A stretch of 64,000 nucleotides of DNA from Acidobacteriota bacterium (lineage in GTDB: Bacteria > Acidobacteriota > Blastocatellia > Pyrinomonadales > Pyrinomonadaceae). The position numbers and the translations under genes are program-made. The notes beneath the pieces were generated by a model. It saw only the letters and a list, made by a program, of their open reading frames with translations. It ran no database searches and was not told the origin of the DNA. The DNA lies in the NCBI GenBank assembly GCA_018269005.1, contig JAFDVK010000012.1:1-64000 (forward strand), read 5' to 3'. Shown here one piece after another: positions 1,096 through 18,999 of this stretch; the first letter of the stretch is position 1; each line of letters opens with the position of its first letter.

Positions 1096-4000
1096 ATGAT
1101 GAACTCACGTATCATTCACATCGCAGAAAGGATCTTGATCGCCGCACTACTTTTCGTGTCCTTCGCCCTCGCGGTAAATGCTCAACCGACCGGCGCTGAC
1201 TCGCCCCAGAGTGGCCATGAAACGAGTGGAAGGGCCGATCAGAACAATAAGAGCATCTCGCGCGTGAATCCAAATACACTCGCGATGGAGCTTGAGCTGC
1301 CGATCCTCTCGTATCCGGGACGTGCAGGCAACGGCTCGTCGATCTCCTACTCTTATTCTTCGAAGGTATGGCGGATGAGTCCCGGAGAACCGTGGTGGCG
1401 ATGGGTCAACTCTCACAAAGTTTACATAACTGACCTTTCTCCGATATTCGGAGAAAATACAGCCGGAGGCTGGACGACGAGTCTTGCACCTCCACGAATA
1501 GAATACAAATACGAAATCTACGATCAAGACGGAAGTTCGTACACTTCGCCGATCGACGGTTTGTACCGCGATCAGCAATGGAATAATTTCATCGAATCTT
1601 TGACAACCATCACCCCAAACTTTGCTCAGCTATTATGTACGGCTGGTGGCTTTTGTTGCACGCTTTATATTTGTCATGCGCCGGATGCGAACCACCAGAT
1701 AAACTGTAACTGTTACAATTGGATACCAAACCCAGGAGTCTTTCCATTTCCTGAGAACCCACCCCCACCGGAACCTCCCGGTCCACCACCACCCGGAGGT
1801 GGATCGCCTACGCCCGCCCTCTACTACGTGCGACGATATACTGCCTACCTGCCTGACGGTTCGCAGCATGAGTTCCGATCGACCACCGGACCGACACAGT
1901 GTGGGAGCCAGAACGGATGCCCTGAAACGGGTGATGGTTATGGGACTTATCTCTCGGTGGACGACTCTGGAACAAGGTTAGAGAGAGACGCGGGGGGATC
2001 AACGATCTACATGCCGGACGGCGGCAAGTATGTCTTTCCCGCAACGCCTACAAACAATCTTGCAGGAAACCTTCCGAGCAAGTATGTTGATGCGGATGGC
2101 AACGTAACCACGTATTCGACTACCAACGACACAGTATCGAGTGTAACGACTGCGACTGTTACCGATACCTTTGGGCGACAGGTTCACGATGTCATGCCGC
2201 TCAATACCAGCATGCAGCGGCACTCGGCTGGAACTGAAATAATGGATCTTGACGGCATCGGGTCGGCGAAGCAGCATTATGAAGTAACGTGGAAGAACCT
2301 AAAACCATTCGATTGCGAAACCGACACGACCGGAACGTGTGGCGGGGGCGATGGTGCCCTTGAGGATCAAACCCAAAAGTTGTTTTACCCTGGTAGATAC
2401 AAGAGGGTTAACGGCTCTACGTATGTCGATCTGTTAACCAATCCCGGTAATATCAATGACCCGGCCAACGAAGTACTCTTTCCGAACAACGGATTATTCG
2501 GGCTTGCTTCAGTAACTGGTCATGCGGGCGTTTATGATGCGGATGGAAACATTATGCTCGACGGGGACGGCCGTGCACTGGTCGCGCCGAGCCGTTTCAA
2601 TCCGGTCGTGCTCTCGAAGGTGACGCTTCCGAACGGCAAATCCTACGAATTCAAGTACAACCGTTATGGAGAGATCACGAAGATCCTCTACCCGACTGGC
2701 AAGGTAGAGGAGTTCGATTATGGTTACATCGCGCCCATCGACGGTGCCGATGAGATGGCGTATGCACAGACGAACCGGGGCGTGATCGAACGCCGAGTTT
2801 ACGCGTCCGAGGGATCGACTCCCGAACAGGTTTGGAGGTACTCTGCGGGCATTGATCCTGTATCGAACGCCTATACAGTCACCACTATCGCACCAACCGG
2901 ATCTGAGGCCGATGGCCATGGAATCAAGACCGAGCGGCGTCTCATCTCGGCTTGGATCAACGATAACTTCGGCTATCATGATCCGTTACAAGGCAAAGCA
3001 TACGACGAACGCGTATTTTCCGAGGGTGCCAACGGCACGCTCCGTTCCCGCACGCTTACCGATTGGTTCGCAAAAGAGGTCGACGGTCGAAAGTCCGATG
3101 CACGCGTTAAACGGACGATTACGATCTCGATCGAGAATGGCCAGGCTCTTGCGACGATGAAGGAGAACGAGTACGCGGTGCCGGGACAGGCCGGAGCGCC
3201 GTCCGGTGCCGACTACTTCGCTCAACTCAACGTCAAATCCGTCAAGACACATCACTTCCGCACGATTCCGGTATCGTTGGCCGAGACGGGGACGATCGAC
3301 CAGATCGCGGCGTATTTTAGCTCAGCGACGGTGGCTACGAAGGAAGAAACCGACTACCTTTACGACGACGACTATCATGCCCGCGGCATCAATGCTCTGC
3401 CCTTGGAGACACGGTCGATCGATCCTGCTACCGGCAACGTGTTGGCGAAGGTACAAACCGTTTACGATAATGAACCCCATCACGCTAGCTATCCCTTTAC
3501 GTATCTGAGCCAAAAATACGACCTCGCAACGAGCTATAACTGCAACCCAACAACACCCTGTTGGGAAGACCCGGATACCAAATATCGCGGGCATCCTACG
3601 ACGACGCGGGTTTGGGACAGCGACAACAGCACGTGGATCGAAACGCATACGAACTACGACATTTTCGGCAATGCAGTAAAGGTAAGGAATGCCGTAGGTA
3701 ATGAAGTTACGACCGAGTTCGCGGCTACCTACAACTATGCGTATCCTACCAAGGTAACCACATCTGCGCCCGATCCTACGAATACTACGGGCACGGATCA
3801 GACATCCTCGGTCGAAACAACGTATGATCCTAATACGGGCTTGCCTGTCACCGTCAAGGACGATTTCGGGCAGATAACGGCGACGGAATACAACGATCCG
3901 CTGCTTCGGCCGACGCGTGTTTACGGGCAGAATTTCACTGCGCCGGAAAGCCAGACGATCTACGACGACAACGCCCGCACCGTAAAGGTGCGCAAGCAGC

Positions 4001-6975
4001 TTGACGCCAATAATTGGGACGAGGCGACGACGTTTTTCGACGTTTTTGGGCGCCCCATTAAGACGCAGGCAAAAGACAGCCAGGGCGATGTTTTTGTTGA
4101 GACGCATTACGATCATCTTGGGCGTGCAGACCGGGTAACAAGCCCGTATCGCTCTACGGATACGCCCCTTTGGTCGAAGACCCGCTTCGACGATCTCGGC
4201 CGAGCCGTCGAGACGTTCGCGCCAACGGAATTGTCCGGTCTTGCCAATGCACAAAGCCTCGGCGTGACTTCGTATGATATTTCGTCAGCGCCGGGATATT
4301 TTGGGGTTGCGGTAAAAACGACCGATGCGTCGGGGCGTGAGTCCTTAAGCGTCACCAACGCGCTCGGCCAGCTCATAGTTGTCGAAGAACCCGACAGCGA
4401 CGGGCACGCCGTTCCGTTGCCGACATCGACTCCACAGCCTCAACCTTCGCCTGGCGGTGGAGGCGGGACAGGCCAATGCGTCATCCCCGAAAACTGTCAA
4501 GGCAGCTTTGCCGGCGGCAGCTTCCCTTCCTACGCGACGTACTACAAATACGACGTTAAGGGCCATATGGTCGAGGCCATTCAGGGCGATCAGCATCGTT
4601 ACTTCAAGTACGACTCGCTTGGACGTATGATCCGCGTGCGGCAGCCGGAGCAGGAGGTGAACGCATCCTTGAACATGACGGACGCGTATAATACTTCGGG
4701 GCAGTGGACGGCCGGGTTTACGTACGACGTTATGGGCAACGTTTTGACAGCGACGGACGCAAAGAACGTTACGATCACGAACACCTATGACAAGGCCAAC
4801 CGCGTCACTTCGCGCACGTATTCGAACGAGCCTCAGGGCGTAACGACGCCTCCGGTTCATTTTTACTACGACGGCAAAGGCCTCGCCCAGCCGCAGTCGC
4901 CGAATTTCGCAAAAGGCAAGCTCACGAGGGTCGAGAACGGGATATCCGCGACCGAATATATGACGTTCGACAATTTCGGGCGTCTGACGCGTTCGCGGCA
5001 GATCACCGACGGCGTCGTTTACGGCGACGACGCCCACCCGATCACCTACACATACAACCTCTCCGGTGCCTTGGTGCAGGAAACTTACCCTTCAGGCCGC
5101 GTCGTCAAGAACGACTTCGAATCCGATGGCGATCTTGCACGGATCTATGGGAATGCGGCGGTCGCTGCTCCGGAACGGACGTATGCGAACTCGTTCAGTT
5201 ACACGACGGACGGCAGGATAGAGAGTCTCAGGCTTGGGAACGGTCTGTGGGAAAAGGCGGTATTCAACAGCCGCCGACAGGTGACGGAGCTGAATCTCGG
5301 ACACGGGCTTGACGGCGATCTGTGGAAGCTTGGCTACGAATACGGTGAATTGCGAACCGACGGGACGGTCGATACGGTGAAGAATACGGGTAACATCGCG
5401 CGTCAAGCCGTCAGCTTTAACGGCCTCCCGCAGCCATTTGTCCAGTCTTACAGATACGATTCCCTGTTCCGTTTGACCGAAGCGACCGAGACCCAGAACG
5501 GAACACAGACCTGGACACAGCAGTTCGGATACGACCGATATGGCAATCGCGTTTCGACGGCACAGAATATTTCAGGGATCGCAAACAACACGACACCGGC
5601 GGTCGATCCTTTGACCAACCGTTTTGTCACTGCGGGGACGACGTTCCAATACGATCTTAATGGAAATCTCGTGCAGGATCAGGAAGGCCGCCAATTTACA
5701 TTTAATGGTGATAACAAGCAATCGGTCGTGAAGGATGCGAATGGCAACAAGATCGGAGAGTATTTCTACGATGGCGAAGGCCGCAGAGTGAAGAAACTCG
5801 TTTACGACCCCAATGGCGTCTTGCAGGAAACCACTATTTTTGTTTATTCCTCAGGAAAGCTCATTGCCGAATACTCAACTGCTGCACCATCGGCGAATCC
5901 GACGACGAACTACACCGCGACGGATATGCTTGGGAGTCCGAGGGTGCTGACGGATAGTCTCGGGAATGTTGTTTCGAGACGCGATTTTCTGCCCTTTGGC
6001 GAGGAAATTTCACCGGATGGAAGTCATCGAACATCGAGCCTTAACTACGATTTCGTTGATGGCATCAGACAGAAATTCACGGGCTACCAGCGTGACGAGG
6101 AAACCAATCTCGATTTTGCGGAAGCCAGATACTATAGCAACCAACACGCGAGATTCACTGCCGTTGACCCATTGTTGGCGTCCGGCAAATCCGCCAACCC
6201 ACAGACTTTTAATCGGTACGTGTATACCATGAACCGACCGCTTGTACTAACGGACGCTAAAGGTCTACAGGCAGGTTGTCCCCCAGGTGTACCTGGCACC
6301 GGTTGCGCTGAAGAAGTAGTCGCCGTAATCGTGATCTGGGTACGGACAATTAATAACTATTTGAACTATAAAGACGGAGCTTTCGAGCTAGATCAACTAC
6401 CGGAGGGTACCAGGTACCGAGAGCGATTTACCTCTCATGGCCCGATAGGGGAATTCATCCAGCCGGGCCAGCCAGTTGGAGATGCTATTAAGGCGGGAAA
6501 TAAAGCAATGGATGATTTGAATACACATGTAATTCAGAAGATTCCATTGATGAACAATTTAGTGAACGCCCAGATGAACGGGGTAAAGGGCGACAATGCC
6601 GGTGTGGTTAAGGAAATGGGCCTGTTTGGTTTCGATCTAGGTACGACGCTTTTTACAGGTGGTACGGGTAAGGCAGTTACAAAAGCCGGAACGACGGTGC
6701 TGGGAAAGTTCCCGAAATATCTTGAAGTTGCTTCTGAACTTGGCGCCAATCGATTTAATATACCTGGCAAAATATGGAAAGGCATGAGCGCTGTAGAACA
6801 ATGGGCTGCCAATCGGAAGTTTCTTGATCGAGCGATAGCCCGCGGTGATCAAATTCTACTCTCTGATCCAATTTCGGATCTGTCAAAGGTCACCGGAAGC
6901 CTGCGAAAAGAGATAGATTACCTAATCAGTAAGGGCTATAAATTAAGCGAGGATGGTAAAGAGTTGATCAAATAA
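1096..6975 (+). CDS. RHS repeat protein with C-terminal polymorphic toxin domain
   Basis: This 1959-residue protein starts with a clear Sec signal peptide (residues 1-29, ending NA|Q) after GGAGA at a good distance. YD-type RHS repeats fill most of the length, broken by proline-rich segments near residues 215-235 and 1110-1130. The conserved tip ('DMLGSPRVLTD', then 'ARFTAVDPL') ends near residue 1707. The remaining ~250 residues are unrelated to RHS. They end in a domain with 'FNIPGKIW.GMS..EQWAANRKFLDRAIARGD' spacing and a final EI.YL...GYKLS.DGK, as seen at the C-termini of many RHS and haemagglutinin-type contact toxins. RHS shells encapsulate and deliver such toxins. The candidate immunity gene starts 3 bases after the stop. 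The toxin activity is inferred from family resemblance only; a nuclease is likely but its catalytic residues are not assigned here. Confidence 0.93.
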   Translation: MMNSRIIHIAERILIAALLFVSFALAVNAQPTGADSPQSGHETSGRADQNNKSISRVNPNTLAMELELPILSYPGRAGNGSSISYSYSSKVWRMSPGEPWWRWVNSHKVYITDLSPIFGENTAGGWTTSLAPPRIEYKYEIYDQDGSSYTSPIDGLYRDQQWNNFIESLTTITPNFAQLLCTAGGFCCTLYICHAPDANHQINCNCYNWIPNPGVFPFPENPPPPEPPGPPPPGGGSPTPALYYVRRYTAYLPDGSQHEFRSTTGPTQCGSQNGCPETGDGYGTYLSVDDSGTRLERDAGGSTIYMPDGGKYVFPATPTNNLAGNLPSKYVDADGNVTTYSTTNDTVSSVTTATVTDTFGRQVHDVMPLNTSMQRHSAGTEIMDLDGIGSAKQHYEVTWKNLKPFDCETDTTGTCGGGDGALEDQTQKLFYPGRYKRVNGSTYVDLLTNPGNINDPANEVLFPNNGLFGLASVTGHAGVYDADGNIMLDGDGRALVAPSRFNPVVLSKVTLPNGKSYEFKYNRYGEITKILYPTGKVEEFDYGYIAPIDGADEMAYAQTNRGVIERRVYASEGSTPEQVWRYSAGIDPVSNAYTVTTIAPTGSEADGHGIKTERRLISAWINDNFGYHDPLQGKAYDERVFSEGANGTLRSRTLTDWFAKEVDGRKSDARVKRTITISIENGQALATMKENEYAVPGQAGAPSGADYFAQLNVKSVKTHHFRTIPVSLAETGTIDQIAAYFSSATVATKEETDYLYDDDYHARGINALPLETRSIDPATGNVLAKVQTVYDNEPHHASYPFTYLSQKYDLATSYNCNPTTPCWEDPDTKYRGHPTTTRVWDSDNSTWIETHTNYDIFGNAVKVRNAVGNEVTTEFAATYNYAYPTKVTTSAPDPTNTTGTDQTSSVETTYDPNTGLPVTVKDDFGQITATEYNDPLLRPTRVYGQNFTAPESQTIYDDNARTVKVRKQLDANNWDEATTFFDVFGRPIKTQAKDSQGDVFVETHYDHLGRADRVTSPYRSTDTPLWSKTRFDDLGRAVETFAPTELSGLANAQSLGVTSYDISSAPGYFGVAVKTTDASGRESLSVTNALGQLIVVEEPDSDGHAVPLPTSTPQPQPSPGGGGGTGQCVIPENCQGSFAGGSFPSYATYYKYDVKGHMVEAIQGDQHRYFKYDSLGRMIRVRQPEQEVNASLNMTDAYNTSGQWTAGFTYDVMGNVLTATDAKNVTITNTYDKANRVTSRTYSNEPQGVTTPPVHFYYDGKGLAQPQSPNFAKGKLTRVENGISATEYMTFDNFGRLTRSRQITDGVVYGDDAHPITYTYNLSGALVQETYPSGRVVKNDFESDGDLARIYGNAAVAAPERTYANSFSYTTDGRIESLRLGNGLWEKAVFNSRRQVTELNLGHGLDGDLWKLGYEYGELRTDGTVDTVKNTGNIARQAVSFNGLPQPFVQSYRYDSLFRLTEATETQNGTQTWTQQFGYDRYGNRVSTAQNISGIANNTTPAVDPLTNRFVTAGTTFQYDLNGNLVQDQEGRQFTFNGDNKQSVVKDANGNKIGEYFYDGEGRRVKKLVYDPNGVLQETTIFVYSSGKLIAEYSTAAPSANPTTNYTATDMLGSPRVLTDSLGNVVSRRDFLPFGEEISPDGSHRTSSLNYDFVDGIRQKFTGYQRDEETNLDFAEARYYSNQHARFTAVDPLLASGKSANPQTFNRYVYTMNRPLVLTDAKGLQAGCPPGVPGTGCAEEVVAVIVIWVRTINNYLNYKDGAFELDQLPEGTRYRERFTSHGPIGEFIQPGQPVGDAIKAGNKAMDDLNTHVIQKIPLMNNLVNAQMNGVKGDNAGVVKEMGLFGFDLGTTLFTGGTGKAVTKAGTTVLGKFPKYLEVASELGANRFNIPGKIWKGMSAVEQWAANRKFLDRAIARGDQILLSDPISDLSKVTGSLRKEIDYLISKGYKLSEDGKELIK
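5893..6216 (+). repeat. RHS tip repeat, resident copy
   Basis: This segment of the large RHS gene encodes the conserved tip from the 'ANPTTNY' stretch to 'NPQTFNR'. It recurs at nearly identical DNA level at 7458-7781 (same length, 324 bp) and 9085-9414 (6 bp longer). The three copies point the same way and each leads into a different C-terminal sequence. They are natural substrates for recombination that would exchange the toxin end of the resident protein. Confidence 0.92.
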
Positions 6976-6977
6976 TT

Positions 6978-7352
6978 ATGGAAACGAATAAAATCGCCAA
7001 AGCGGTAGTTCAAATACCAAAAGTGTTGTACACGGAGTATCACGAGAGCGTATCTTTCCGCGACCTAATTTTGAACAGCACTTACTGTGGTTCTTCCGAA
7101 CGTGTTTCTGTAGAGATGCTCGCGAATGCGCTTAGCGAACATCCGGAAAATGTAGAAAACTGGCTCGCCTGGTCGGATAACAAACGAACAGACTCAGGTT
7201 GGTTCTTTCGGCGTCAGCTTGCGGGCGGTTTTGAAGTGGGCTATTTTCCTCATACCGAGGATCGGCCGAGCCTGCGATACGCTGAAACTGACATTTTTCT
7301 TGCGTGCGCGAAGTTCATCAAATATGAGATCGATGATGTATGTAGTGGGTGA
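6978..7352 (+). CDS. Candidate immunity protein for the RHS toxin
   Basis: A 124-residue acidic protein without signal peptide or membrane segment starts 3 bases after the RHS stop codon, the position expected of a cognate immunity gene. Its middle has a 'VENWLAWSDNKRTDSGW' stretch and its end an aromatic, acidic 'ACAKFIKYEID' helix. This overall pattern recalls small immunity proteins paired with contact-dependent toxins. Its stop (7350-7352) is followed at once by the frame of an orphan RHS tip, so the gene sits exactly between two RHS tips. A cytoplasmic location fits a toxin acting on nucleic acid. The role is inferred from position and size, and no named family is claimed. Confidence 0.75.
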   Translation: METNKIAKAVVQIPKVLYTEYHESVSFRDLILNSTYCGSSERVSVEMLANALSEHPENVENWLAWSDNKRTDSGWFFRRQLAGGFEVGYFPHTEDRPSLRYAETDIFLACAKFIKYEIDDVCSG

Positions 7353-7379
7353 GTCCCAGGAGGGCATCGGGTCAAGAAG

Positions 7380-8537
7380 GTGACGCAGACCGAGACGATC
7401 GTCTATGTTTACTCGAACGGGAAGCTTGCGGCTGAGTATTCGACCGCTGCGGCGCCTGCGAATCCGACGACGAACTACACCGAGACGGATATGCTTGGGA
7501 GTCCGAGGGTGTTGACGGATAGTCTCGGGAATGTCGTTTCGAGACGCGATTTTCTGCCATTCGGAGAGGAAATTTCACCGGATGGAAGTCATCGAACATC
7601 GAGCCTCAACTACAATTTCGGCGACGGCATCAGACAGAAATTCACAGGCTACCAAAGGGACGAAGAAACACAACTGGATTTCGCCGAAGCGCGAATGTAC
7701 TCGAATGGGCTTGGAAGATTCACCGCCGTCGACCCACTCCTCGCCTCCGGCAAATCCGCCAATCCCCAAACCTTCAACCGGTATCTCTATGTGGTAAATA
7801 ATCCAACGAGATACGTCGATCGAGACGGAAAATGTCCTAAGCCAGCGCTTAGCCCAGGCCAAGTTGGGATTTGCATAGAAGCGTTTATCGCTGCGAAAAA
7901 AATCAATGGAATCGGTAATGGTGACGGACGGACACACAGTTCAGATTCAGATGCCTCCGCTCGAATGAGAGTGTCCTTCATTCTCACCGCAACTGCTGAC
8001 AATATCCATCGTGAGGTGACCGAAAGCCTGATAACAAACAGCACTGTGTCGATTCCTGGCACGGTGACAACATTGGTTCCCGTCCCCACTGGAGAGTCAA
8101 CCGGTGAAATAAAGATTGGTGGCTATACAACAGCCGCCAAAGGAACGGCGGGTTTTGGTAATGGGCGAACCACCGAGACCATTCTCGACGTTGGTCTAAG
8201 AAATGGAAAGAATGGTGCGCAAGCTACCGCTGAGAGCGCGGTCGGAAGCGGCCTTTCTAGGGCTGCGGAGGCTATTGGAGGCGTACCAGCAGCCGCGGTG
8301 AAGATTGCTGAGGCACAGGTACCGAAAGGAACTATCGATGTTCAAGCTCGCGTGAAGCTTACGGGTAGCGGTGATAAGACTTCGGTTACAGCTAGAGCAC
8401 GAGCAAGACCATTTCCATCGGCGACTGGCTGGGCTTATATTGGGATGTCAGACGGTACCGTTAAAACTGTTCTGCTATTTCGCTACGACGAAACCAAACC
8501 ATCCGACCTTGTAAAGCCGATGCGGAGGATCAATTAG
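7380..8537 (+). CDS. Orphan RHS tip 1 with unrelated C-terminal domain
   Basis: The homologous frame opens right after the previous gene's stop, at 7353, and matches the parent RHS protein from its 'G.RVKK' position on; the first usable start is GTG 7380. It lacks the signal peptide and repeat shell, so it cannot be exported by itself as the parent is. Residues 1-135 are the conserved tip. From 'RYLYVVNNPTRYVDRDG' onward the sequence departs completely. About 250 residues follow, rich in Thr, Ala and Gly, with no motif I recognise; this is where a toxin would be. The next gene, 14 bp downstream, is a small lipoprotein that could be its partner. This matches displaced orphan tips known from other rhs loci. 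Whether it is expressed is not evident: no good ribosome-binding site precedes the GTG. Confidence 0.75.
   Translation: MTQTETIVYVYSNGKLAAEYSTAAAPANPTTNYTETDMLGSPRVLTDSLGNVVSRRDFLPFGEEISPDGSHRTSSLNYNFGDGIRQKFTGYQRDEETQLDFAEARMYSNGLGRFTAVDPLLASGKSANPQTFNRYLYVVNNPTRYVDRDGKCPKPALSPGQVGICIEAFIAAKKINGIGNGDGRTHSSDSDASARMRVSFILTATADNIHREVTESLITNSTVSIPGTVTTLVPVPTGESTGEIKIGGYTTAAKGTAGFGNGRTTETILDVGLRNGKNGAQATAESAVGSGLSRAAEAIGGVPAAAVKIAEAQVPKGTIDVQARVKLTGSGDKTSVTARARARPFPSATGWAYIGMSDGTVKTVLLFRYDETKPSDLVKPMRRIN
7458..7781 (+). repeat. RHS tip repeat, orphan copy 1
   Basis: Direct repeat of 5893-6216 with the same length and only scattered differences. Recombination between the two copies would delete the resident toxin end and its immunity gene and attach the C-terminal domain of orphan tip 1 to the full RHS protein. 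Confidence 0.92.
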
Positions 8538-8551
8538 GGAGCCCCTTTTGT

Positions 8552-8971
8552 ATGAAAAAACTACTATTCGTTTTAGTATCGCTGATGATCTTCACGGTTG
8601 GATGCCGCTCCCAGGAATCGAAGCCGCCCGACGACTATCGCATAAAAATGGGGCCGGACGTTAAAGCCAACCTTGTCGTATTTTTTAAGAAGGAAGCTAC
8701 TTGGAAAGAAATCCTCGACTTTCAAACAAGCGTGATTGGGACACCAGATGAAACGGGCACTGGGTTCGAATCCCTGCCCGGAATGATGAGTGTTGTTCGG
8801 GTAGAAATTGACGGATTCGAAGGAGTTGCTATCAATTTCAAACCGTCTGCGACAGACGAGCAGCGTTCGTTCGTGCTTCAGCGCATTCGCGACTCTCAAA
8901 TCGTTTATAAGACTTATGTGAACCGTGTTCCTAGCGGTATAACCGACTTGGCTCGCCATGTGCCAGGATAA
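8552..8971 (+). CDS. Small lipoprotein between two orphan RHS tips
   Basis: A 139-residue protein begins MKKLLFVLVSLMIFTVGC, a type II signal peptide with lipobox TVGC, so it should be lipid-anchored in the cell envelope. The mature part (about 120 residues) contains no motif I recognise. It starts 14 bp after orphan tip 1, and its TAA stop overlaps the ATG of orphan tip 2 (TAATG). By position it would be the immunity or partner protein of orphan tip 1. If so, the toxin would act outside the cytoplasm, which is unusual for RHS toxins. Other small exported proteins follow RHS scraps in this window (15045, 15754, 16580, 17367, 37783). The function is unknown. Confidence 0.7.
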   Translation: MKKLLFVLVSLMIFTVGCRSQESKPPDDYRIKMGPDVKANLVVFFKKEATWKEILDFQTSVIGTPDETGTGFESLPGMMSVVRVEIDGFEGVAINFKPSATDEQRSFVLQRIRDSQIVYKTYVNRVPSGITDLARHVPG

Positions 8972-9426
8972 TGGTTCTAAAGGGAAAGCGTGTCAAAAAG
9001 GAAGTCATCGCGACCGGCGAGACGACCGTGTTTGTGTATTCGAGCGGCAAGCTCGTTGCCGAATACTCGACCGCTGCACCATCGGCGAATCCGACGACGA
9101 ACTACACGGCGACGGATATGCTTGGGAGTCCGAGGGTGTTGACGGATTCGTTCGGGAATGTTGTTTCGAGGAGAGATTTTTTGCCGTTCGGTGAGGAGCT
9201 TTATGCGGATGGCGTGCACCGCAGCGTCGCGGGCAAGTATTCGCAAACCGGTCAGGACGGCGTGCGCCAACGCTTCACGGGCTATCAGAAGGACGTCGAG
9301 ACCTCGCTCGACTTCGCCGAGGCCCGTATGTACGCCAACACCTACGGCCGCTTCACAGCAGTTGATCCGTTGCTCGCCTCAGGAAAGTCTGCCAATCCCC
9401 AAACCTTCAACCGCTTGGCAGGATGA
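8971..9426 (+). pseudogene. Orphan RHS tip 2, truncated at the element junction
   Basis: The frame starts at the ATG overlapping the lipoprotein stop and matches the parent RHS protein from the same 'G.RVKK' position as tip 1. It then runs through the conserved tip ('GNVVSRRDFLPFGEEL', 'FAEARMYANTYGRFTAVDPL'). After 'NPQTFNR' (9414) RHS similarity stops and the frame ends four codons later. The expected 'Y.Y..N.P....D..G' and toxin domain are absent. The sequence from about 9415 on belongs to the integrative element. It is therefore a decapitated cassette. Confidence 0.85.
9085..9414 (+). repeat. RHS tip repeat, orphan copy 2
   Basis: Third copy of the tip repeat found at 5893-6216 and 7458-7781. 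It is near-identical over its first ~80 bases, then more diverged, and 6 bp longer. The repeat stops exactly where the integrative element starts. Confidence 0.85.
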
Positions 9427-10486
9427 TGGCGGCGTTAGCTTCTTGTTCGGTGAGGCGGCCGTCGAAGATGATGATGGCGAGTCGTTCTTCGATCAGGTCG
9501 CGGAGATCGTCCGGATTCGCGGGATCGTTGAGTTCTCGTTGCCGGGCGATCAAGAAGTCGGCGAGGTCGCAGCCTTCTCGCTTGTCGGCATTGTTCGCGT
9601 AGCGTTCGATCAGGGTTGAGATCGAGATATCAAGGCCGTCCCGCCTTGCCGTGTCTCGAATATCCTTCCAACGCCCAAAGCCGTCCGCGTCGGGATAAAG
9701 AATGATCTTGCGTAGGTATCCGAGTGTTCTGAGCCTTTCGATGTTCAGGTTGCTTTTGCCGCCAGTGGCAAGCCATACGAGATCAGGAAAAACTTCATTG
9801 CAGATGGACGCAATGACGGCGGACTTTTCGCTTTCGACAATAGCAACGGGTAAGCCGGGCCGGTCGCGGAGAAGGTGTTCGCCGAAAAAGCATTGTTTCA
9901 GCTCGAAGGATCCCGGAAGCTTTCCGGCCTGCCTCAAGGTCGAATGTATCCAATTCGGCGATCTATCCTTTCGCCGCTTCCCCGTCTTCGAATCGTAGGC
10001 GATCAGCTTTCCCGTGCGTATGTGTTGCCGTCTGTCTATCTGCCAAAAGATCGCTTCACCGTTGCGGCCCGTGCCGATCTTGTATTCACTCACCGCCGCG
10101 AGAACGGCTTCAGGATCGAAAGGAAAGAGTCCGAGAAGGAATTGCACAAAGGCGTTTCGGTCGTAATCTCGAAGCGTCTCGATCAAGAGATGCCGCTCCA
10201 GATAGCTTGTCTTTGGCGTTTGCTTGGCGTTTACGGCATCGGAAGGCCGCTTCGCTTCTCTGTATGCCTTTGATCGAAATGAAGGCTTAAAGGCGTGATT
10301 CTCAGCGAAGTATTCGCTCGGCTTTCGATGATAGCCGCAAGATGATTCCCGGTCGCAGCGTCCGACATCTTCGGCGAGATACTCGCCCGTCTCGGTGTTG
10401 ACATACCGTGTGAACCGCTTGTTCGCTCCACAAGCCGGGCAACTATGCCGTGATCCCTTTCCGCCGTATCTTTCGAGTGAGAACAT
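9407..10486 (-). CDS. Zinc-finger/Toprim primase-like protein (DUF6371 type)
   Basis: This 359-residue protein opens with a CPACG...GRCDRESSCGYH zinc-binding region (residues ~15-52), as in DNA primases and in the DUF6371 proteins of Bacteroidota mobile elements. A Toprim-like core follows: 'VAIVESEKSAVIAS' near residue 215, then 'KIILYPDADGFGRWKD' near 270. It probably makes primers for replication of the excised element. It is downstream of the helicase gene on the same strand, separated by the repeat array. The last codons and TGA stop (9407-9409) read into RHS-derived sequence, so the natural C-terminus may have been altered when the element was joined here. Family assignment is from memory of the characteristic N-terminus. 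Confidence 0.8.
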   Translation of the reverse strand: MFSLERYGGKGSRHSCPACGANKRFTRYVNTETGEYLAEDVGRCDRESSCGYHRKPSEYFAENHAFKPSFRSKAYREAKRPSDAVNAKQTPKTSYLERHLLIETLRDYDRNAFVQFLLGLFPFDPEAVLAAVSEYKIGTGRNGEAIFWQIDRRQHIRTGKLIAYDSKTGKRRKDRSPNWIHSTLRQAGKLPGSFELKQCFFGEHLLRDRPGLPVAIVESEKSAVIASICNEVFPDLVWLATGGKSNLNIERLRTLGYLRKIILYPDADGFGRWKDIRDTARRDGLDISISTLIERYANNADKREGCDLADFLIARQRELNDPANPDDLRDLIEERLAIIIFDGRLTEQEANAAIILPSG

Positions 10487-10494
10487 TTCTATTC

Positions 10495-10638
10495 GGTGTT
10501 CACGGTGTTCACGATGTTCACGATGTTCACGGTGTTCACGATGTTCACGGTGTTCACGGTGTGAACGCTATGAACGCTATGAACGCTATGAACGCTATGA
10601 ACGCTATGAACGCTATGAACGCTATGAACGCTATGAAC
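10495..10638. repeat. Two opposed 9-bp iteron-like arrays
   Basis: Seven tandem GRTGTTCAC units (10495-10557) are followed by one hybrid unit GGTGTGAAC (10558-10566) and eight perfect GCTATGAAC units (10567-10638). Both unit types share a TGAAC core in opposite orientation (GTTCA on the left, TGAAC on the right). At the switch lies a perfect inverted repeat, GTTCAC-GGT-GTGAAC. The array fills the gap between helicase and primase genes, and the helicase stop codon lies inside the last unit. Tandem short repeats beside replication genes are typical of Rep-binding iterons, so this is a candidate origin. A simple-sequence expansion is the alternative. Confidence 0.9.
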
Positions 10639-11710
10639 GCAGATACTTGTTGACCGTTCCAAGTGCTACGCCAAGTTCAAACGCGATCTCTCGTTGTGAT
10701 CTTCCTTCCGCCGAAAGTTCTCTCGCTTTCGCGATCAGCCCTTCGCGGTCGCCGTCTGAAAGCTCGCGCAAGTGTTCGCGTTCCCTTCCGTAGCCGACAA
10801 ACTCGAAATGAAGGAAGTTACTTGGCTTTGCTATCTGGCAAAGCAGAACGTTGTCCGAATCGAAGCGCATTTCCGCATTGCGGACTTTGATCTGCTTCAA
10901 ATAGCGAAGGCCCTGCTCTTTGCAGCTCTCACCTATCGCAAAGCTCGAATCGCAGAAATTGATCAGCATCTTCGAGCCTTGCAGGTCATTCCGGCTTATC
11001 GGCTTTGCGTGATCGCGTTTTGGCGTATGAGCTAAGGCAAGGATCGAAAGGCCGTATTTCTGCTTTAGGCTCTTTAAGAATTTCATCAAAGGCAATGCAT
11101 CTTTCGCCCGTTCGGTCTCATTCTTGAGATAGGTCAGGTTGTCGATAACTAGAACCTTCGCACCGCTCGAAGTGATCTCTCTCTCAAGTGAATAGTTCAG
11201 ATAAGCCTCGAAGCCCTCGAAACCGTGATCTATCTCGCCTTCAGGATCGATCTCGGCCCGTAGTAGATTCGGGTGAAACGCGAAAGGGTTATCGAAGTAA
11301 GCCGCATTGAGCTGCTTCTCCGAATACCTTGCCTCGAATTGCTTGTCGGAAAGCTCGAAGTCGAAGTAGATAACCTTTTGCGGTTCGGCTTCGAGTGTCA
11401 GCTCTAATATAGAACGGCCGATCGATATAGCGTCTGCGATCTGAACCGCAAGGATCGATTTGCCTACGTTCGTATCCGCGAATAAGATGCAAATCTCGCC
11501 CTCGAACCAAAACTCGCCGAACAGCATCTTCGGCGCAGGCCGCTTCTGCGCGTCCGCGATCCATTGGCCCGCCGTCTGTATCTTGAATAGGCTTTTGAAG
11601 CCGTCCGGTTCGGGATCGCTTTCAGGGCCGGGCCGCGCAAGCATCGCTTCGGCATCGGCCCGAATGGCGTCCTCATCGATCTGAAACCGGTTCGACACCT
11701 CGTAGGTCAT
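10631..11710 (-). CDS. RepA-like AAA/RecA-fold ATPase with C-terminal helix-turn-helix
   Basis: A 359-residue protein. Walker A is in 'FADTNVGKSILAVQIAD' (residue ~90) and Walker B in 'AKVLVIDNLTYL' (residue ~185), followed by 'LALAHTPKRD', in the style of the RecA-fold ATPases (AAA_25, RepA-like helicases) carried by plasmids and integrative elements. The last 25 residues, 'REIAFELGVALGTVNKYLRS', form a helix-turn-helix that could bind the adjacent repeats. The ATG overlaps the stop of the zinc-ribbon gene by 4 bases (translational coupling), and the stop codon lies within the iteron-like array. Likely role: loading or acting as helicase at the element's origin (inference). Confidence 0.85.
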   Translation of the reverse strand: MTYEVSNRFQIDEDAIRADAEAMLARPGPESDPEPDGFKSLFKIQTAGQWIADAQKRPAPKMLFGEFWFEGEICILFADTNVGKSILAVQIADAISIGRSILELTLEAEPQKVIYFDFELSDKQFEARYSEKQLNAAYFDNPFAFHPNLLRAEIDPEGEIDHGFEGFEAYLNYSLEREITSSGAKVLVIDNLTYLKNETERAKDALPLMKFLKSLKQKYGLSILALAHTPKRDHAKPISRNDLQGSKMLINFCDSSFAIGESCKEQGLRYLKQIKVRNAEMRFDSDNVLLCQIAKPSNFLHFEFVGYGREREHLRELSDGDREGLIAKARELSAEGRSQREIAFELGVALGTVNKYLRS

Positions 11711-13488: not shown

Positions 13489-14715
13489 TTAATTCACGAA
13501 CTCTCCGTCTGTATCGACCGCTCTGGTCGGTGTATCGAGCCTTTCTCTCACTTCGTCGATGATCGCAAGGTCGTCGGTCGAAACGTAATGCTTCTGCGTC
13601 GTCGCAAGGGTGCTATGGCCCGCGAGCTTTCCGGCAACCGCAAGCGGCACGCCCTTGACACTCAATCGAGTTACGAAGGTTCGCCGCAGGTCGTGAAAGG
13701 TCAGCCCTTCGATCCCTGCAAGCCGCAAGGCCGTCGCCCAACTCCGCTTGAAGTCATTGAACGGGAATATCCGCCCTTTCTCGCCGAAGTTCGGCAATGC
13801 CAGAAGCTCAGCTTTGAGCCTGTCCCGGAGCGGAACATTGCGGCCTCGCTGCGTCTTTGTATGAAGGCTTTGAACGTGTATGAAGTTCCGGTCGAAATCG
13901 ACGTTCTGCCATTCGAGCGTCAACACTTCATTGCGCCGCAAGCCTGCATCAAGCCCAAGCAATATCGCGGCCTTTAGATGCGGATTGTTGACGTTTATCG
14001 CCGCTGTAACGGGCTTTCCGCGTCGAAGGTATGTAACCGCTCGCATTCCCTCGCAGGACGCTAAAAGAAGCGTTTCTTCGCTCTCGGTGAGAGTTCGCGT
14101 CCGGGCCTTTTCCGCATCGGGGTCGATCGCCTTCGAGCCAAGCGTTATGTCTCGGCTTATCCAGCCTTCCGCGTATGCGAATTTGATCAGGTGTTTGAAG
14201 ATCGCAAGCGTCCGGTTGACGGTCGAAAGTGATACACGCTTTCGCTCGCTCGGCTTCAACTCGCCTGCCTTTCCGCGTCTATCGCCCTGCTTCAACCGCC
14301 AGGTCTTGAAACCGTTAAGATCGTTGCGCGTGATACTCGCCAAGCGTTTCTTGCCGAAGTATTCTTCCAGCGTGTCCATAGCTGTATAAACCGGCTTAGT
14401 TGATCGAATGCCAGCAACCTTTCGCCCTTCTGCGATCTCTGCCGGACGGTAGAAAGTTCGCTTGGCATACGCCGCTAGATCACTGAATGTCATTTTGTCG
14501 CCAACGACACTCTGCCCTTGCGTCTTGGAAAGTTTGCCTTCGAGTCTCGGCCTGGCATCAAGCGCGTCGTTTCTTGTGGCGAATTGGTAGGTCTTGCGTC
14601 GGGTGTTACCGTGTTCGTCCGAAAAGGTAAAACGTAGCGTCCAACGGTTCTTGTATGATCCGGCGTCGTCGGCTCCCTTCTTCCCACGTCGGAAGATAGA
14701 ATGCTTGATTTCCAT
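13489..14715 (-). CDS. int: Tyrosine recombinase (phage-type integrase)
   Basis: A 408-residue site-specific recombinase that should integrate and excise the element. The core-binding domain lies around residues 60-200. The catalytic domain has 'LGLDAGLRRNEVLTLEWQNVDF' (first Arg), 'FHDLRRTFVTRL' (H-x-x-R), 'AGHSTLATTQKHYV' (His, then the nucleophilic Tyr). The ATG at 14715 has an AGAGG ribosome-binding site 5 bases upstream and is preferred over an in-frame start at 14760. The gene reads away from the tRNA-Thr remnant 180 bp to its right, the usual place for an attachment site. Confidence 0.93.
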   Translation of the reverse strand: MEIKHSIFRRGKKGADDAGSYKNRWTLRFTFSDEHGNTRRKTYQFATRNDALDARPRLEGKLSKTQGQSVVGDKMTFSDLAAYAKRTFYRPAEIAEGRKVAGIRSTKPVYTAMDTLEEYFGKKRLASITRNDLNGFKTWRLKQGDRRGKAGELKPSERKRVSLSTVNRTLAIFKHLIKFAYAEGWISRDITLGSKAIDPDAEKARTRTLTESEETLLLASCEGMRAVTYLRRGKPVTAAINVNNPHLKAAILLGLDAGLRRNEVLTLEWQNVDFDRNFIHVQSLHTKTQRGRNVPLRDRLKAELLALPNFGEKGRIFPFNDFKRSWATALRLAGIEGLTFHDLRRTFVTRLSVKGVPLAVAGKLAGHSTLATTQKHYVSTDDLAIIDEVRERLDTPTRAVDTDGEFVN

Positions 14716-14898
14716 AATTCCTCTTTGAAAAAAATTAGGACTCAAATTAGGACTCGCCACTAAGTCCTAGTGGGAAAAAGTATGCCATGCGAGGAGAATT
14801 GATGCAAACCTGTGATTTAAGTAGACGCTAATGTTTATGGGACTTGGGCGAGCTTCCGATCAATGTTTTCGGGCGCAGTTGTGAGTTAGGGCAACTCT

Positions 14899-14943
14899 TT
14901 CGTAATCGAAAGGTCGTCGGTTCAAATCCGACGGGTGGCTCCA
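14899..14943 (+). other. 3' half of tRNA-Thr(CGT), element attachment site
   Basis: From the anticodon loop on, the sequence is a perfect tRNA. It has TT-CGT-AA (anticodon CGT at 14901-14903), the 3' anticodon strand TCGAA, a GTCGG/CCGAC T-arm with loop TTCAAAT, acceptor strand GGGTGGC, T and encoded CCA. Upstream, the matching anticodon 5' strand (TTCGA), D-arm and acceptor 5' strand (GCCACCC) are absent. A tRNA cut in the anticodon loop next to an integrase is the displaced attachment half left by integration. The intact tRNA expected at the other end is not in view. Confidence 0.8.
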
Positions 14944-15044
14944 TAATATCCCTGATCTTTACAATTGGTTACGATAGATCTCACAGGACCACTTTGACCA
15001 ACAATGCTTTCTGTTGGGCTCGACGTTGGACCGTTCCGGATACT

Positions 15045-15551
15045 ATGAGACCGATCGTTCTTAGTTTCCTATTGATATTTCAATCAGTCGGCTGTGCTGT
15101 GCCGTCATCGCCGAAACCGGGTGCACTTCCAGATGGTTGGGTTGAAGTCAGCGAGGTCGGTTTTCGGCTTTCCATCCCCGCAACCCTTCTAAAAGAAGAT
15201 GTTACGGGCATCGATACTTTCTATCAAAGATATTCGGACGCAAATATGTCTCTCACAATAGAAGCCGAAACTGGCTTTGCGGAACTGGATAGACGGTTGA
15301 CCGGAAAGGATGTAACCGATGTCAAACGAATGGTCGTTGAGAGCATTGGCGAGAAAAGCCTCCTCGCAAGCTACACTTTCGTGTCCGATCGCACCAACTT
15401 CCAAGATCCCGACAAACATTTTGCGATGGAACTCGCGTTTAACTGTAGACTGCAAAGCCGAAATATGTCATTCCTCGTCCTTTACTCGACTCCGGAACAA
15501 GCCTCCGTCGCCGAGAAACTTCTGCGGTCAGTTATCGTAGACTGTGGTTAG
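15045..15551 (+). CDS. Small lipoprotein of unknown function
   Basis: A 168-residue protein. ATG 15045 is chosen because it gives a clean type II signal peptide, MRPIVLSFLLIFQSVGC; the frame extends further upstream through the tRNA remnant, which is not coding. The mature protein reads like a small globular domain ('GWVEVSEVGFRLSIPATL', 'YQRYSDANMSLTIEAETGF'), similar in feel to exported proteins that bind at the membrane, but no family is recognised. An RHS scrap begins 20 bp after its stop. It is the first of several exported proteins in this region. Confidence 0.7.
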   Translation: MRPIVLSFLLIFQSVGCAVPSSPKPGALPDGWVEVSEVGFRLSIPATLLKEDVTGIDTFYQRYSDANMSLTIEAETGFAELDRRLTGKDVTDVKRMVVESIGEKSLLASYTFVSDRTNFQDPDKHFAMELAFNCRLQSRNMSFLVLYSTPEQASVAEKLLRSVIVDCG

Positions 15552-15570
15552 AACACGTCCTTGATCCAGG

Positions 15571-15729
15571 GAAACAACCGTTTTCGTGTACGACGCATCT
15601 GGTAGACTGGTGGCAGAATATTCTACGAACATTGCGGCGGCACAATACGCAAAAGTGAGTTATCTGCCGGCGGATCACCTCGGTAGCCCGCGAATTAACA
15701 CCGACGCAACCGGCGCCGTCATCGCCTGA
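15571..15729 (+). pseudogene. RHS scrap A
   Basis: 52 codons in frame read 'ETTVFVYDASGRLVAEYST', then 'YLPADHLGSPRINTDATGAV', ending at TGA 15727-15729. This is the segment just before and at the RHS tip, as in the intact RHS protein at 5839-5970. There is no start codon and no continuation into a toxin. The next exported-protein gene follows at once. Confidence 0.88.
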
Positions 15730-15753
15730 GGGAGGTTGGAAATAAGAACGTCG

Positions 15754-16413
15754 ATGGTGAAACTTTCTGTAGTTTTCATAATAGTGTTAATTAGAAGTGT
15801 TGTTCTCGCCCAAGATGGCCAGGCAGATAGAGTTTCTGTGTTCCAATCTGATAGGTCGAAGCCATCGGTCTACTTGACGTTTGAGAGCGCGGGTGGAAAA
15901 CGTCCGAACTTTCCGGATATGTACTCTGATGCCGACCGAATCACGCTGCGATTCCACAATAATTTTGATCGACCCTTAGCTGTTGATGCAAATTTTTTGG
16001 TTGCTGACGTCAAGTTAACGTCATTTCGCTTGAAAGGTGGGGTATTAGGCTCGGCGCTGCCGGACAATGCGACAGTAGAGGTTTGCTACGAGGCGGAGGC
16101 TCAACCGCAAATCACGGTAGAAGCGTTCGACGCCATCGAAGTTCCAAAGCAATACCCGTCATCCTACAGCTGTAAGTGGACTAAAAAAAGACGCGGCCAT
16201 CGGGCTCTATGGGTTCTACCCGGCAATTCTTTTGTCTTTAGCGTCCCACGCATTTTTCTGGGCGAGAGCATGCTGGTTTTTACGGCTTTCAATTATGACT
16301 GGGAAATTGATGACAACGGATACGTAATGCCGGATGCACCCGTTCATCACGTTTATTTCTATTCAAATGACCTGCCGTACGCCCTCAGGAAGCGATTTAA
16401 ACAAAGGCTTTGA
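15754..16413 (+). CDS. Secreted protein of unknown function
   Basis: About 219 residues. ATG 15754 gives the signal peptide MVKLSVVFIIVLIRSVVLA|QD; a TTG at 15736 directly behind GGGAGG is an alternative. The mature part is predicted beta-rich, with 'VYLTFESAGG', 'ITLRFHNNFDRPL' and two cysteines, suggesting a periplasmic or secreted beta-sandwich. No family is recognised. It lies between RHS scraps A and B; its stop TGA (16411-16413) shares its last base with the first recognisable codon of scrap B. Confidence 0.68.
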   Translation: MVKLSVVFIIVLIRSVVLAQDGQADRVSVFQSDRSKPSVYLTFESAGGKRPNFPDMYSDADRITLRFHNNFDRPLAVDANFLVADVKLTSFRLKGGVLGSALPDNATVEVCYEAEAQPQITVEAFDAIEVPKQYPSSYSCKWTKKRRGHRALWVLPGNSFVFSVPRIFLGESMLVFTAFNYDWEIDDNGYVMPDAPVHHVYFYSNDLPYALRKRFKQRL

Positions 16414-16502
16414 CCGAAACCAATCGAGGTAACGTTGCGCAGCAGTTCGGGTATGATCGTTTTGGGAATCGGACGAGTTTCAGCCAGACGTCTGTGTTGT
16501 GA
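16413..16502 (+). pseudogene. RHS scrap B
   Basis: 29 codons ending at TGA 16500-16502 encode 'TETNRGNVAQQFGYDRFGNR' and 'TSFSQTSVL'. This equals the intact protein's 'TWTQQFGYDRYGNRVSTAQN' region (5500-5570). There is no start codon. It is wedged between two exported or membrane protein genes. Confidence 0.85.
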
Positions 16503-16579
16503 ATAGATCCATAGAATGCAGGAGCCCTACAGGGAAAGAGGCTCGAGTAAATGGTTCTGATGCGGAGATTGCTAGTTGC

Positions 16580-17083
16580 ATGCAGATCACAAACAGTCCA
16601 TCAAATGGCAACCTAGTATTAAGGTTAAATCCGGCCGCAGTATTTTTTGGCTTGCTCGGAAGTGCATTTGCTCTTGCTATCGGGCTGTACCTGATCATCG
16701 GAGGATTCGGCGAGTCGATGAGTTGGATATATCTTATTTGCGGCACGGTCTTCTCTTTGATGGCTGTAGCATATCTTTATAGCGTCGTGCGTACAATTAG
16801 GATAACGTTCTACGACGAAGCTTTTGTTGAAGTGAATTGGTTGGGGAGAGCCATCCCAAGGACTTATAGCGAGATCCTTTACATCGATGGTGAACCGGAA
16901 AATGCAATTCACATACATTTAAAGGACGGGAGCCGCGTCAATATCCACGAAAGCTTGTTATGTTTTGAGACCTCGCCCGTCATTGCAAAGCAAAAAGTTC
17001 TCAAGAAATTGGAAGCCTCTTGTTCCGCGGCAATCACTCATGATCGCGACAGCATGGAGGCCATAGAACCCGAGATCAAATAG
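16580..17083 (+). CDS. Membrane protein with two transmembrane segments and PH-like domain
   Basis: About 167 residues from ATG 16580, which has GGAG 12 bases upstream; a GTG at 16499 overlaps the stop of RHS scrap B and would add 27 unconvincing residues. Two hydrophobic helices lie close together near the start ('AVFFGLLGSAFALAIGLYLI' and 'WIYLICGTVFSLMAVAYLYS'). A cytosolic beta-rich part follows ('IRITFYDEAFVEVNWLGRAI', 'HIHLKDGSRVNI') and a C-terminal helix. This layout resembles small bacterial PH-domain membrane proteins. The function is unknown. Confidence 0.65.
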   Translation: MQITNSPSNGNLVLRLNPAAVFFGLLGSAFALAIGLYLIIGGFGESMSWIYLICGTVFSLMAVAYLYSVVRTIRITFYDEAFVEVNWLGRAIPRTYSEILYIDGEPENAIHIHLKDGSRVNIHESLLCFETSPVIAKQKVLKKLEASCSAAITHDRDSMEAIEPEIK

Positions 17084-17220
17084 ATGGTCGGTTTTACTAA
17101 AGACAACGCCTTTCAGCTCGACCTAGTAATGAGTAGCGATTTCCCTTGGTCTTGAACGTCGAGTACGAATCTGACAGATTGAATTGTAATCATGGGACGG
17201 TATTGCAATCTTCTAAGCAG

Positions 17221-17364
17221 GCGTTTACGTTCGACCGATATGGCAATCGGAAATTCGACGAGGCGAATACAGCGACCTTGCCGAAGAACTGCGGCACGGC
17301 ACCGAGCTTTTCAGGGACTTTGACGGCGGCAAGAATACTGAAGAAAGAAACTCCGAAATATTAA
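17221..17364 (+). pseudogene. RHS scrap C
   Basis: The open frame encodes 'AFTFDRYGNRKFDEANTATL', then 'PKNCGTAPSF', typical of the 'FTFDRYGNR' segment of RHS proteins. It drifts into unrelated residues before stopping at 17364, two bases before the next gene. Like scraps A and B it comes from just upstream of the RHS tip. Confidence 0.75.
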
Positions 17365-17366
17365 TT

Positions 17367-18176
17367 ATGCGAAGAGGTGCAGCGCTGGTTACATTTTTAC
17401 TTTTACTTTGCGCGACCGGTTACAGCCAAGGATGCATTTGGAAGGACTTTCCTATAAATCGGATCGCCGGACGAGTTATGTATAGAAACTTGATCGTTGC
17501 GGACGCAGAACTCGATCTGCTTCGGGAAAGCGGTACTACAAAGGCGATCTTAAAGGTCCGTAGCGACGCCAGCGGGAGGTTTTCTTTCCCAGCGGTTCGA
17601 CCTGGCAAGTACGTGCTCAGTGTACACGCTCACGACATGATGCCCCTTAGGTTCGCATTCACGCTATCGAAACGAATCGAGAAAGATGTTGAGCGCGGAA
17701 TATTGATCCGGCTTACGATAACGTCTAACGATGGCTGTGCGCAACCCGAACCGCTAGAAATTCCGAACGCCTCGGCCCGGAATGAGACAGATCTAAGGAT
17801 TCCTCTTGCATTTGAAATCGACGGAACTAGAATAGCTGCGAAGCCTAAGGTCTGGTTCGTTGTAGGCAGTCGTCAATTCAAGGCTAGAGTGGAAAATGGT
17901 GTCCTCGTTGTGCCCATGAACGTTGTCCAACAGGACGAATTCGGTTTGAGAGTTACACTCAAAGGCAATGAAATGTCTTTCAAGGGACTTACCGCTAACG
18001 ACTTGAACGCGTCTTGGATTATTGGAATCGATAACCGTCCTTTTGAAAAAGATGACATTTCATTGTCATACGACTACACAGGGTTGTCTCGGGTCTATTT
18101 GCTTAGTATCAAGCCTGTCGGGGAAGGAATCGGTTGGGTTTTGATCTCAAGACCTAGGCGAGAAGCCTATAAGTAG
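17367..18176 (+). CDS. Secreted protein with carboxypeptidase-regulatory-like fold
   Basis: 269 residues. The signal peptide is MRRGAALVTFLLLLCATGYS|QG. Residues ~30-95 ('INRIAGRVMYRNLIVADAEL', 'SDASGRFSFPAVRPGKYVLS') have the pattern of a transthyretin-like/carboxypeptidase regulatory domain: G.V......A.V.L, D..G.F.F..V..G.Y.L. The C-terminal ~150 residues are beta-rich and unrecognised. It is the last gene of the RHS-scrap-punctuated string. Confidence 0.7.
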   Translation: MRRGAALVTFLLLLCATGYSQGCIWKDFPINRIAGRVMYRNLIVADAELDLLRESGTTKAILKVRSDASGRFSFPAVRPGKYVLSVHAHDMMPLRFAFTLSKRIEKDVERGILIRLTITSNDGCAQPEPLEIPNASARNETDLRIPLAFEIDGTRIAAKPKVWFVVGSRQFKARVENGVLVVPMNVVQQDEFGLRVTLKGNEMSFKGLTANDLNASWIIGIDNRPFEKDDISLSYDYTGLSRVYLLSIKPVGEGIGWVLISRPRREAYK

Positions 18177-18333: not shown

Positions 18334-18999
18334 TTAGCTAAAGGCGACGAGGCGTGGATTCGCCCTTTTCTTCAAAAGACGCTGCAGTTTTAGCCTCGCC
18401 TTGTGCAGCTGTGATTTCGACGTGCCGACCGAGCAGCCAAGGATCTGTGCGACCTCTTCGTGCTCGAAGCCTTCGACATCGTGCAGCACGAATACGCTCT
18501 TGTATCCATCCGGAAGCTGTTCGATCGCGGCCTCGAGGGCGATCTTGTCAACGACCTGCATCTTCATCGGGTTCGATGTGCCCATGACGATCTGATCGGG
18601 CGTTTCGCCTTCTTCGGTGACCTTTTCGAACTTCACGGTTCGCTTTCTAAAGTGCATCAGGACCTGGTTAACGGTCATACGATGCAGCCAAGTCGTGAAG
18701 GCGGAATCACCGCGGAAACTGCCGATCTTACGATAAAGCTGAATAAAGACGTCCTGCGTAAGGTCTTCGGCCTCGGAAGCGTTCTGGAGCATCCGCAAGC
18801 AGATCGCATACACTCTGCGATGGTGGCGGTTATAAAGCTCTTCGAAGGCCGGCATGCCGCCCTCGGCCGCTTCCTGCGCGAGGTCAAAATCCTTCGCTTT
18901 CTTGAGACTCGCGGCCGGTGCCGTGTCAAACACCACATTGTCCGCGCTTACGCCGTTGTGACTATGAAAAACCGGAAAGTTTAATGCTTCTGTTGTCAT
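18334..18999 (-). CDS. ECF-type RNA polymerase sigma factor
   Basis: 221 residues. Region 2 covers ~55-120 ('[20 protein letters not shown]', '[18 protein letters not shown]', '[20 protein letters not shown]') and region 4 ~155-205 ('[20 protein letters not shown]', '[20 protein letters not shown]'). There is a ~45-residue N-terminal extension. It directs polymerase to a specific promoter set. An AGGAGG ribosome-binding site precedes the ATG. No anti-sigma gene follows: the next gene on that side is convergent, so its control is not evident here. Confidence 0.93.

What the first reader, a model, noticed from the sequence alone, without database searches (positions are those of the whole stretch)
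14944..18176. String of exported proteins punctuated by RHS scraps
Seen: lipoprotein 15045, scrap A, secreted 15754, scrap B, membrane 16580, scrap C, secreted 17367. Every scrap derives from the same ~90-residue stretch just before the RHS tip, ends within a few bases of the next start, and lacks a toxin. Inference: a fossil array of immunity-like or partner genes that survived after their toxins were lost, or a distinct family of exported proteins acquired through RHS recombination. The uniform export signals are the surprising part.
Basis: partly seen in the sequence, partly recalled or inferred. Interest (0 to 1): 0.72.

Follow-up and report, generated by a model that had tools for sequence, protein, structure and literature searches.

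The report
Orphan shields left by lost toxins
Between a tRNA gene fragment and a sigma-factor gene, this bacterium (probably of the family Pyrinomonadaceae) keeps a row of exported or membrane proteins separated by scraps of a toxin gene; at least two look like antidote proteins whose own toxins are gone, a known kind of arrangement but with unusual exported antidotes.

Summary
A profile built from 39 other RHS cores finds all three scraps (A 3.7e-19, C 1.4e-6, B 1.5e-4; next window hit 0.79). They do not share one 90-residue stretch: B and C come from core positions 94-125, A from 202-252. Three genes carry export signals; the third (E3) is a membrane protein.

Two of the four look like orphan immunity genes. 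Where relatives of E2 (15754) directly follow an RHS tip, that tip is always one domain, usually with an HEGxH zincin-like motif. The C-terminal domain of E4 (17367) follows RHS tips that share a second, JAMM-like domain in three of three cases. The window's genome has no match to the first toxin. E1 has no RHS link; E3 has no homologue.

The 2.7-kb block E2-E4 with its scraps is absent from the relative that shares the site, an accretion zone beside a tRNA-Thr att fragment. Genes downstream of RHS tips in this genus are enriched in export signals (29/65 versus 14/64, p 0.009), so the export is partly expected. Verdict: an orphan-immunity locus of displaced RHS modules.

The parts
1096..6975 (+). 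Intact RHS protein, 1959 aa, N-terminal signal peptide, variable tip from about residue 1725
6978..7352 (+). I1, predicted cytoplasmic immunity of the intact RHS tip (97.6% identical copy beside the matching RHS in G083:C1)
7380..8537 (+). Displaced RHS core piece with its own tip (T2)
8552..8971 (+). I2, lipoprotein in the immunity position after T2; a broken T2 and an intact 86%-identical I2 also occur at G000:C25
8980..9417 (+). Third RHS core piece, cut off by the integrative element
13489..14760 (-). Integrase of the integrative element (98% identical in G083); tyrosine-recombinase type by sequence inspection
14901..14943 (+). 43-nt 3' fragment of tRNA-Thr(CGU), the att end of the element
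15045..15551 (+). E1, 168 aa, exported (possible lipoprotein); no RHS link found; dN/dS 0.27 against G083
15568..15723 (+). Scrap A, RHS core profile positions 202-252
   Evidence: E 3.7e-19
15754..16413 (+). E2, 219 aa secreted protein; orphan immunity for an HEGxH RHS tip
16419..16490 (+). Scrap B, RHS core profile positions 94-117
   Evidence: E 1.5e-4
16499..17083 (+). E3, likely membrane protein (two hydrophobic segments, then a soluble domain); GTG start overlaps the stop of scrap B, alternative ATG near 16580; no homologue found
17203..17292 (+). Scrap C, RHS core profile positions 96-125; its frame stays open to 17364
   Evidence: E 1.4e-6
17367..18176 (+). E4, 269 aa secreted protein: CarboxypepD_reg-like domain (about 17463-17666) plus C-terminal domain E4C (about 17781-18161) of a family that follows JAMM-like RHS tips
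18334..18999 (-). Conserved sigma-factor gene that bounds the accretion zone

Best explanation
The locus is an array of orphan immunity genes left by displaced RHS toxin modules. Older tip-plus-immunity modules were pushed downstream of RHS genes, their toxin tips and most of their core were deleted, and the immunity genes stayed; the scraps are the scars. E2 is an envelope-located antidote to an HEGxH (zincin-like) RHS tip, and the C-terminal half of E4 is an antidote to a JAMM-like RHS tip. The cell keeps them without the toxins, most likely as protection against neighbours that still carry them. They are exported because these RHS proteins have Sec signal peptides and their tips probably act in the periplasm or at the surface. 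Shown: the scraps, the pairing of each family with one toxin domain, absence of the E2 toxin from this genome, presence or absence of the block at one site. Inferred: neutralisation, site of action, the deletion history, and any such role for E1 and E3.
For: Scraps are real RHS core. Five E2 relatives lie directly downstream of RHS genes, within -41 to +24 nt of the tip stop, and all five tips are one domain. A sixth relative follows the same domain without RHS core. Two less circular checks agree: a tip found only by the tip profile (G076:C82) is followed by an E2-profile protein (E 8.7e-23), and an E2 relative in another family of the class (G154) is preceded by a tip relative (E 2.8e-19). 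E4C relatives in G019, G076 and G047 follow tips that share one domain, 38-43% identical to the first, with HEE...HxH...PSxxD. G000 lacks a match to the HEGxH tip. Elsewhere in G000 scraps also adjoin exported ORFs. Precedents: Jackson 2009 (PMC2935791), Kirchberger 2017 (PMC5361080), Zhang 2012 (PMC3482391).
Against: Sixteen of 28 stand-alone E2 relatives, including the closest (G060, 42%), show no RHS gene nearby, and E2-like domains also end some larger proteins, so the family is not only an RHS immunity family. Six of the seven strong tip hits were used to build the tip profile, so the seven-of-seven count is largely circular. E1 and E3 have no RHS association. Purifying selection was shown only for E1, on 31 changes. 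The toxin classes rest on motifs: Pfam and NCBIfam gave no convincing match for the tips, and a PDB profile search with the HEGxH tip gave none.
Confidence: 0.75

Rival explanations
1. The four proteins are ordinary envelope proteins brought together by accretion at a tRNA-Thr integration hot spot. Their neighbourhood with RHS scraps is incidental, since this genome has many scraps.
For: E1 and E3 have no RHS-linked relatives; most E2 relatives are away from RHS; the zone holds unrelated genes in other species, such as a small toxin-antitoxin-like pair in G071.
Against: E2 and E4C each pair with one specific toxin domain in several genomes, and a scrap precedes each of E2, E3 and E4. Chance does not explain this for E2 and E4; it may hold for E1.
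Confidence: 0.15
2. The whole block is a neutral wreck: immunity genes on their way to loss along with the toxins, with no present function.
For: Scraps carry stops and deletions; the block is missing in G083; the toxins are gone.
Against: E2, E3 and E4 are intact ORFs of 219, 167-194 and 269 codons with intact export or membrane segments, while the scraps are reduced to 24-52 matching codons; E1 is under purifying selection.
Confidence: 0.1

Closest known systems
Heterogeneous polyimmunity loci (Zhang et al. 2012, PMC3482391)
   Same: Same-strand run of unrelated genes without intervening toxins, small gaps, next to a site-specific recombinase
   Different: The paper reports extended loci (four or more genes) only from Proteobacteria, Bacteroidetes, Firmicutes and Actinobacteria, and nearly all immunity proteins as cytoplasmic; here genes are exported or membrane-bound, are separated by RHS scraps, and only two of four are tied to a toxin
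Displaced rhs tips (Jackson et al. 2009, PMC2935791)
   Same: Strings of partial cores downstream of an intact rhs gene; a tipless core fragment was seen in two E. coli strains
   Different: There most fragments keep their tips; here tips are gone and only the immunity genes remain, beyond an att site
T6SS orphan immunity arrays of Vibrio cholerae (Kirchberger et al. 2017, PMC5361080)
   Same: Successive displacement removes effectors and keeps immunity genes
   Different: T6SS effectors rather than RHS proteins with signal peptides
Imm65 with Tox-JAB-1 (Zhang et al. 2012)
   Same: Exported immunity protein beside a JAB-type RHS tip
   Different: E4 and its relative in G019 gave no Pfam match to any immunity family; E4 has no clear lipobox; membership not shown

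Membership tests
Heterogeneous polyimmunity locus | Several unrelated immunity genes, same strand, small gaps | tested here: inconclusive
   Four unrelated same-strand genes with gaps of about 85-285 nt that hold the scraps, but only E2 and E4C are tied to toxins
Heterogeneous polyimmunity locus | No toxin gene or toxin cassette between the immunity genes | tested here: met
   Only tipless core scraps between them
Heterogeneous polyimmunity locus | In several cases adjacent to a recombinase such as XerC/D | tested here: met
   Integrase 13489-14760 and tRNA-Thr att fragment 14901-14943
Orphan immunity gene | Family pairs with a toxin in other genomes | tested here: met
   E2: 8 of 28 stand-alone relatives directly after one tip domain; E4C: 3 relatives after another. 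Not met for E1 and E3
Orphan immunity gene | Cognate toxin absent from the genome | tested here: met
   E2: no match to the HEGxH tip profile in G000. For E4C the JAMM-like tip was not searched in G000
Orphan immunity gene | Neutralises the toxin | not testable with these tools
   Needs bench work
Tox-JAB-1 with Imm65 | Sequence match to known JAB toxin and immunity models | tested here: not met
   The G019 tip and its E4C relative had no such Pfam match; motif resemblance only

The most novel reading that the evidence does not exclude
In this acidobacterial lineage many RHS toxins act in the envelope, some as metallopeptidase-type tips, and exported immunity is common rather than exceptional; the genomes keep libraries of exported orphan immunity genes marked by RHS scraps.
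Probability: 0.45. Interest if true: 0.6.

Novelty: new variant of a known kind. Interest (0 to 1): 0.5.

Why it matters
Immunity proteins of polymorphic toxins have been described as almost all cytoplasmic (PMC3482391). Two unnamed exported families, each tied to its own peptidase-like RHS tip, point to toxins that work in the envelope and give concrete toxin-antidote pairs to test. The scraps also record how orphan immunity arrays form, in a phylum where the survey read here did not report extended arrays.

Tried and rejected
Pfam, NCBIfam and PADLOC scans of E1-E4: no family for E1 or E2, only a sub-threshold CarboxypepD_reg match for E4 and weak matches for E3. PDB profile searches with the HEGxH tip and with E2: nothing. 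AlphaFold of E2: pLDDT 31 alone and 46.5 with three sequences, too poor to use; the fold search gave no match below E 0.001. Genome-contig scans found two relatives of E2, matching places already seen in the genome searches. E1 and E3 searches at order and class level gave no RHS-linked relative. A first export test with a loose predictor had a high background (40/66 versus 48/115, p 0.02); the stricter one is reported, though against size-matched controls it is only p 0.077. The idea that scraps share one recombination breakpoint was looked at: 5' ends cluster near core position 190-205, but local alignments tend to begin at conserved islands and scraps B and C start elsewhere, so it was not adopted.

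Full report
Names used. E1-E4 are the four proteins at 15045, 15754, 16499/16580 and 17367. The closest E2 relative, in the same genus, lies in a record titled Pyrinomonadaceae bacterium, so the window most likely belongs to that family of Acidobacteriota.

The observation. I built a profile from 39 RHS cores of other loci, leaving out the loci that cover the window, and searched all 2,119 stop-to-stop segments of the window. The only matches below E 0.5 were the intact RHS protein (1096-6975), two displaced pieces (7362-7829, 8980-9417) and the three scraps: A 15568-15723 (3.7e-19), C 17203-17292 (1.4e-6), B 16419-16490 (1.5e-4). The next hit was 0.79 and the best in the reversed window 3.6. 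The scraps are therefore real. They are not from one stretch: A covers core positions 202-252 of 347, B and C 94-125. Junctions with the next gene are tight.

E2. A search of 119 genomes of the family found relatives in 15 besides G000. I fetched their surroundings. In G069, G076, G067, G002 and G052 the relative lies directly after an RHS gene, -41 to +24 nt from its stop. The five tips, chosen only because an E2 relative follows, are related to one another and share an HEGxH motif in four of five (the G052 copy reads NEGIN). In G002:C174 the same domain stands without RHS core, again before an E2 relative. A profile of these six tips found one further strong tip, G076:C82, which is followed by an E2-profile protein. 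A wider search found an E2 relative in a different family (G154) with a tip relative directly upstream. Weaker tip relatives are mostly followed by other exported proteins, among them a family whose member L044:6227-6757 has a TonB_C-like domain. G000 has no match to the tip. In total, of 28 stand-alone E2 relatives, 8 have the toxin directly upstream, 4 more lie in or beside RHS arrays (G000 itself, G083, one in G052, and G028, where upstream is cut off), and 16 show no RHS gene in the flanks fetched, some of which are short.

E4. Residues 33-100 weakly match CarboxypepD_reg. The C-terminal domain belongs to a family of small secreted proteins. Of its members in the family's genomes, three lie directly after RHS tips: G019, G076:C116 and G047:C30. 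Those three tips are one domain, 43% and 38% identical to the first, with conserved HEE, an HxH and PSxxD, which resembles a JAMM/JAB metal site. This is a motif reading; no Pfam model matched the G019 tip.

E1 and E3. E1 is 91% identical at the same site in G083 and otherwise has only remote relatives outside RHS loci. Its dN/dS against G083 is 0.27, from 16 synonymous and 15 nonsynonymous changes. E3 has no homologue in 162 genomes. Neither can be called an immunity protein on this evidence.

The site. Window 14901-14943 is the 3' part of tRNA-Thr(CGU), identical to the intact gene in G052 and G071, which lies near the same sigma gene there. Between this tRNA end and the sigma gene G052 has 148 bp, G071 a small gene pair, G083 only E1, and G000 E1 to E4 with scraps. 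Window 15554 joins 18259 almost directly in G083, with about 10 bp between, so the 2.7-kb block came or went as a unit; the direction is not known.

Export. Using one start per gene and a strict rule, 29 of 65 genes directly after RHS tips in the genus are predicted exported, against 14 of 64 control genes (p 0.009); against 33 size-matched controls the difference is p 0.077. Eight of ten genes after HExxH-bearing tips are exported. The predictor is simple and missed MalE. Four of five full-length RHS proteins examined have signal peptides by the same kind of rule. Zhang et al. state that all but few immunity proteins are cytoplasmic (PMC3482391). Toxins that leave through Sec would expose the producer's own periplasm, so a periplasmic antidote makes sense; this is inference.

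History and precedent. Jackson et al. proposed that new tips displace old ones into downstream strings, and noted a tipless core fragment in two strains (PMC2935791). Kirchberger et al. inferred effector loss with immunity retention in V. cholerae (PMC5361080). Zhang et al. defined polyimmunity loci. The window fits this kind, with exported genes and scraps as the variant. Elsewhere in G000, exported ORFs also adjoin scraps or displaced RHS pieces (L043, L044, L046, L047, L052), and some match genes that follow RHS tips in other loci.

Noticed in passing
window 14901-14943: 43-nt 3' fragment of tRNA-Thr(CGU), identical to the intact tRNA near the same sigma gene in G052 and G071; the att end of an integrative element with the integrase at 13489-14760.
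   Followed up: yes
window 9393-9427; L111 4000-4024: The shared integrative element joins an RHS core piece at the same 'CAACCGCTTG|GCAGG' point in G000 and G083, although the RHS pieces differ.
   Followed up: partly
window 10450-10650: A short in-frame repeat array (HDVHGV / NAMNAM) lies in the element.
   Followed up: no
L043, L046, L050, L052, L248: A palindromic GTCCCCGTAGGGGAC element lies at the 3' end of several RHS scraps in G000 and G071.
   Followed up: no
L048 7628-8484 (G000:C25): A second copy of I2 (86% identical) is intact while its T2 toxin is broken into pieces, perhaps an intermediate stage of toxin loss.
   Followed up: partly
L047 7484-8539 (G000:C25): A 351-aa exported protein made of two tandem copies of a domain that also follows an intact RHS gene at G000:C12 (L041 1990-2490), like a polyimmunity protein.
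   Followed up: partly
L281, L282, L285: E2-like domains at the C-terminus of larger proteins in G066, G081 and G069, with no RHS core in the flanks held.
   Followed up: no
L044, L046, L246 just upstream of the RHS pieces: The same upstream sequence (CACACCCAAACCTGCGTAAACTT) abuts RHS pieces at three loci in two genomes.
   Followed up: no
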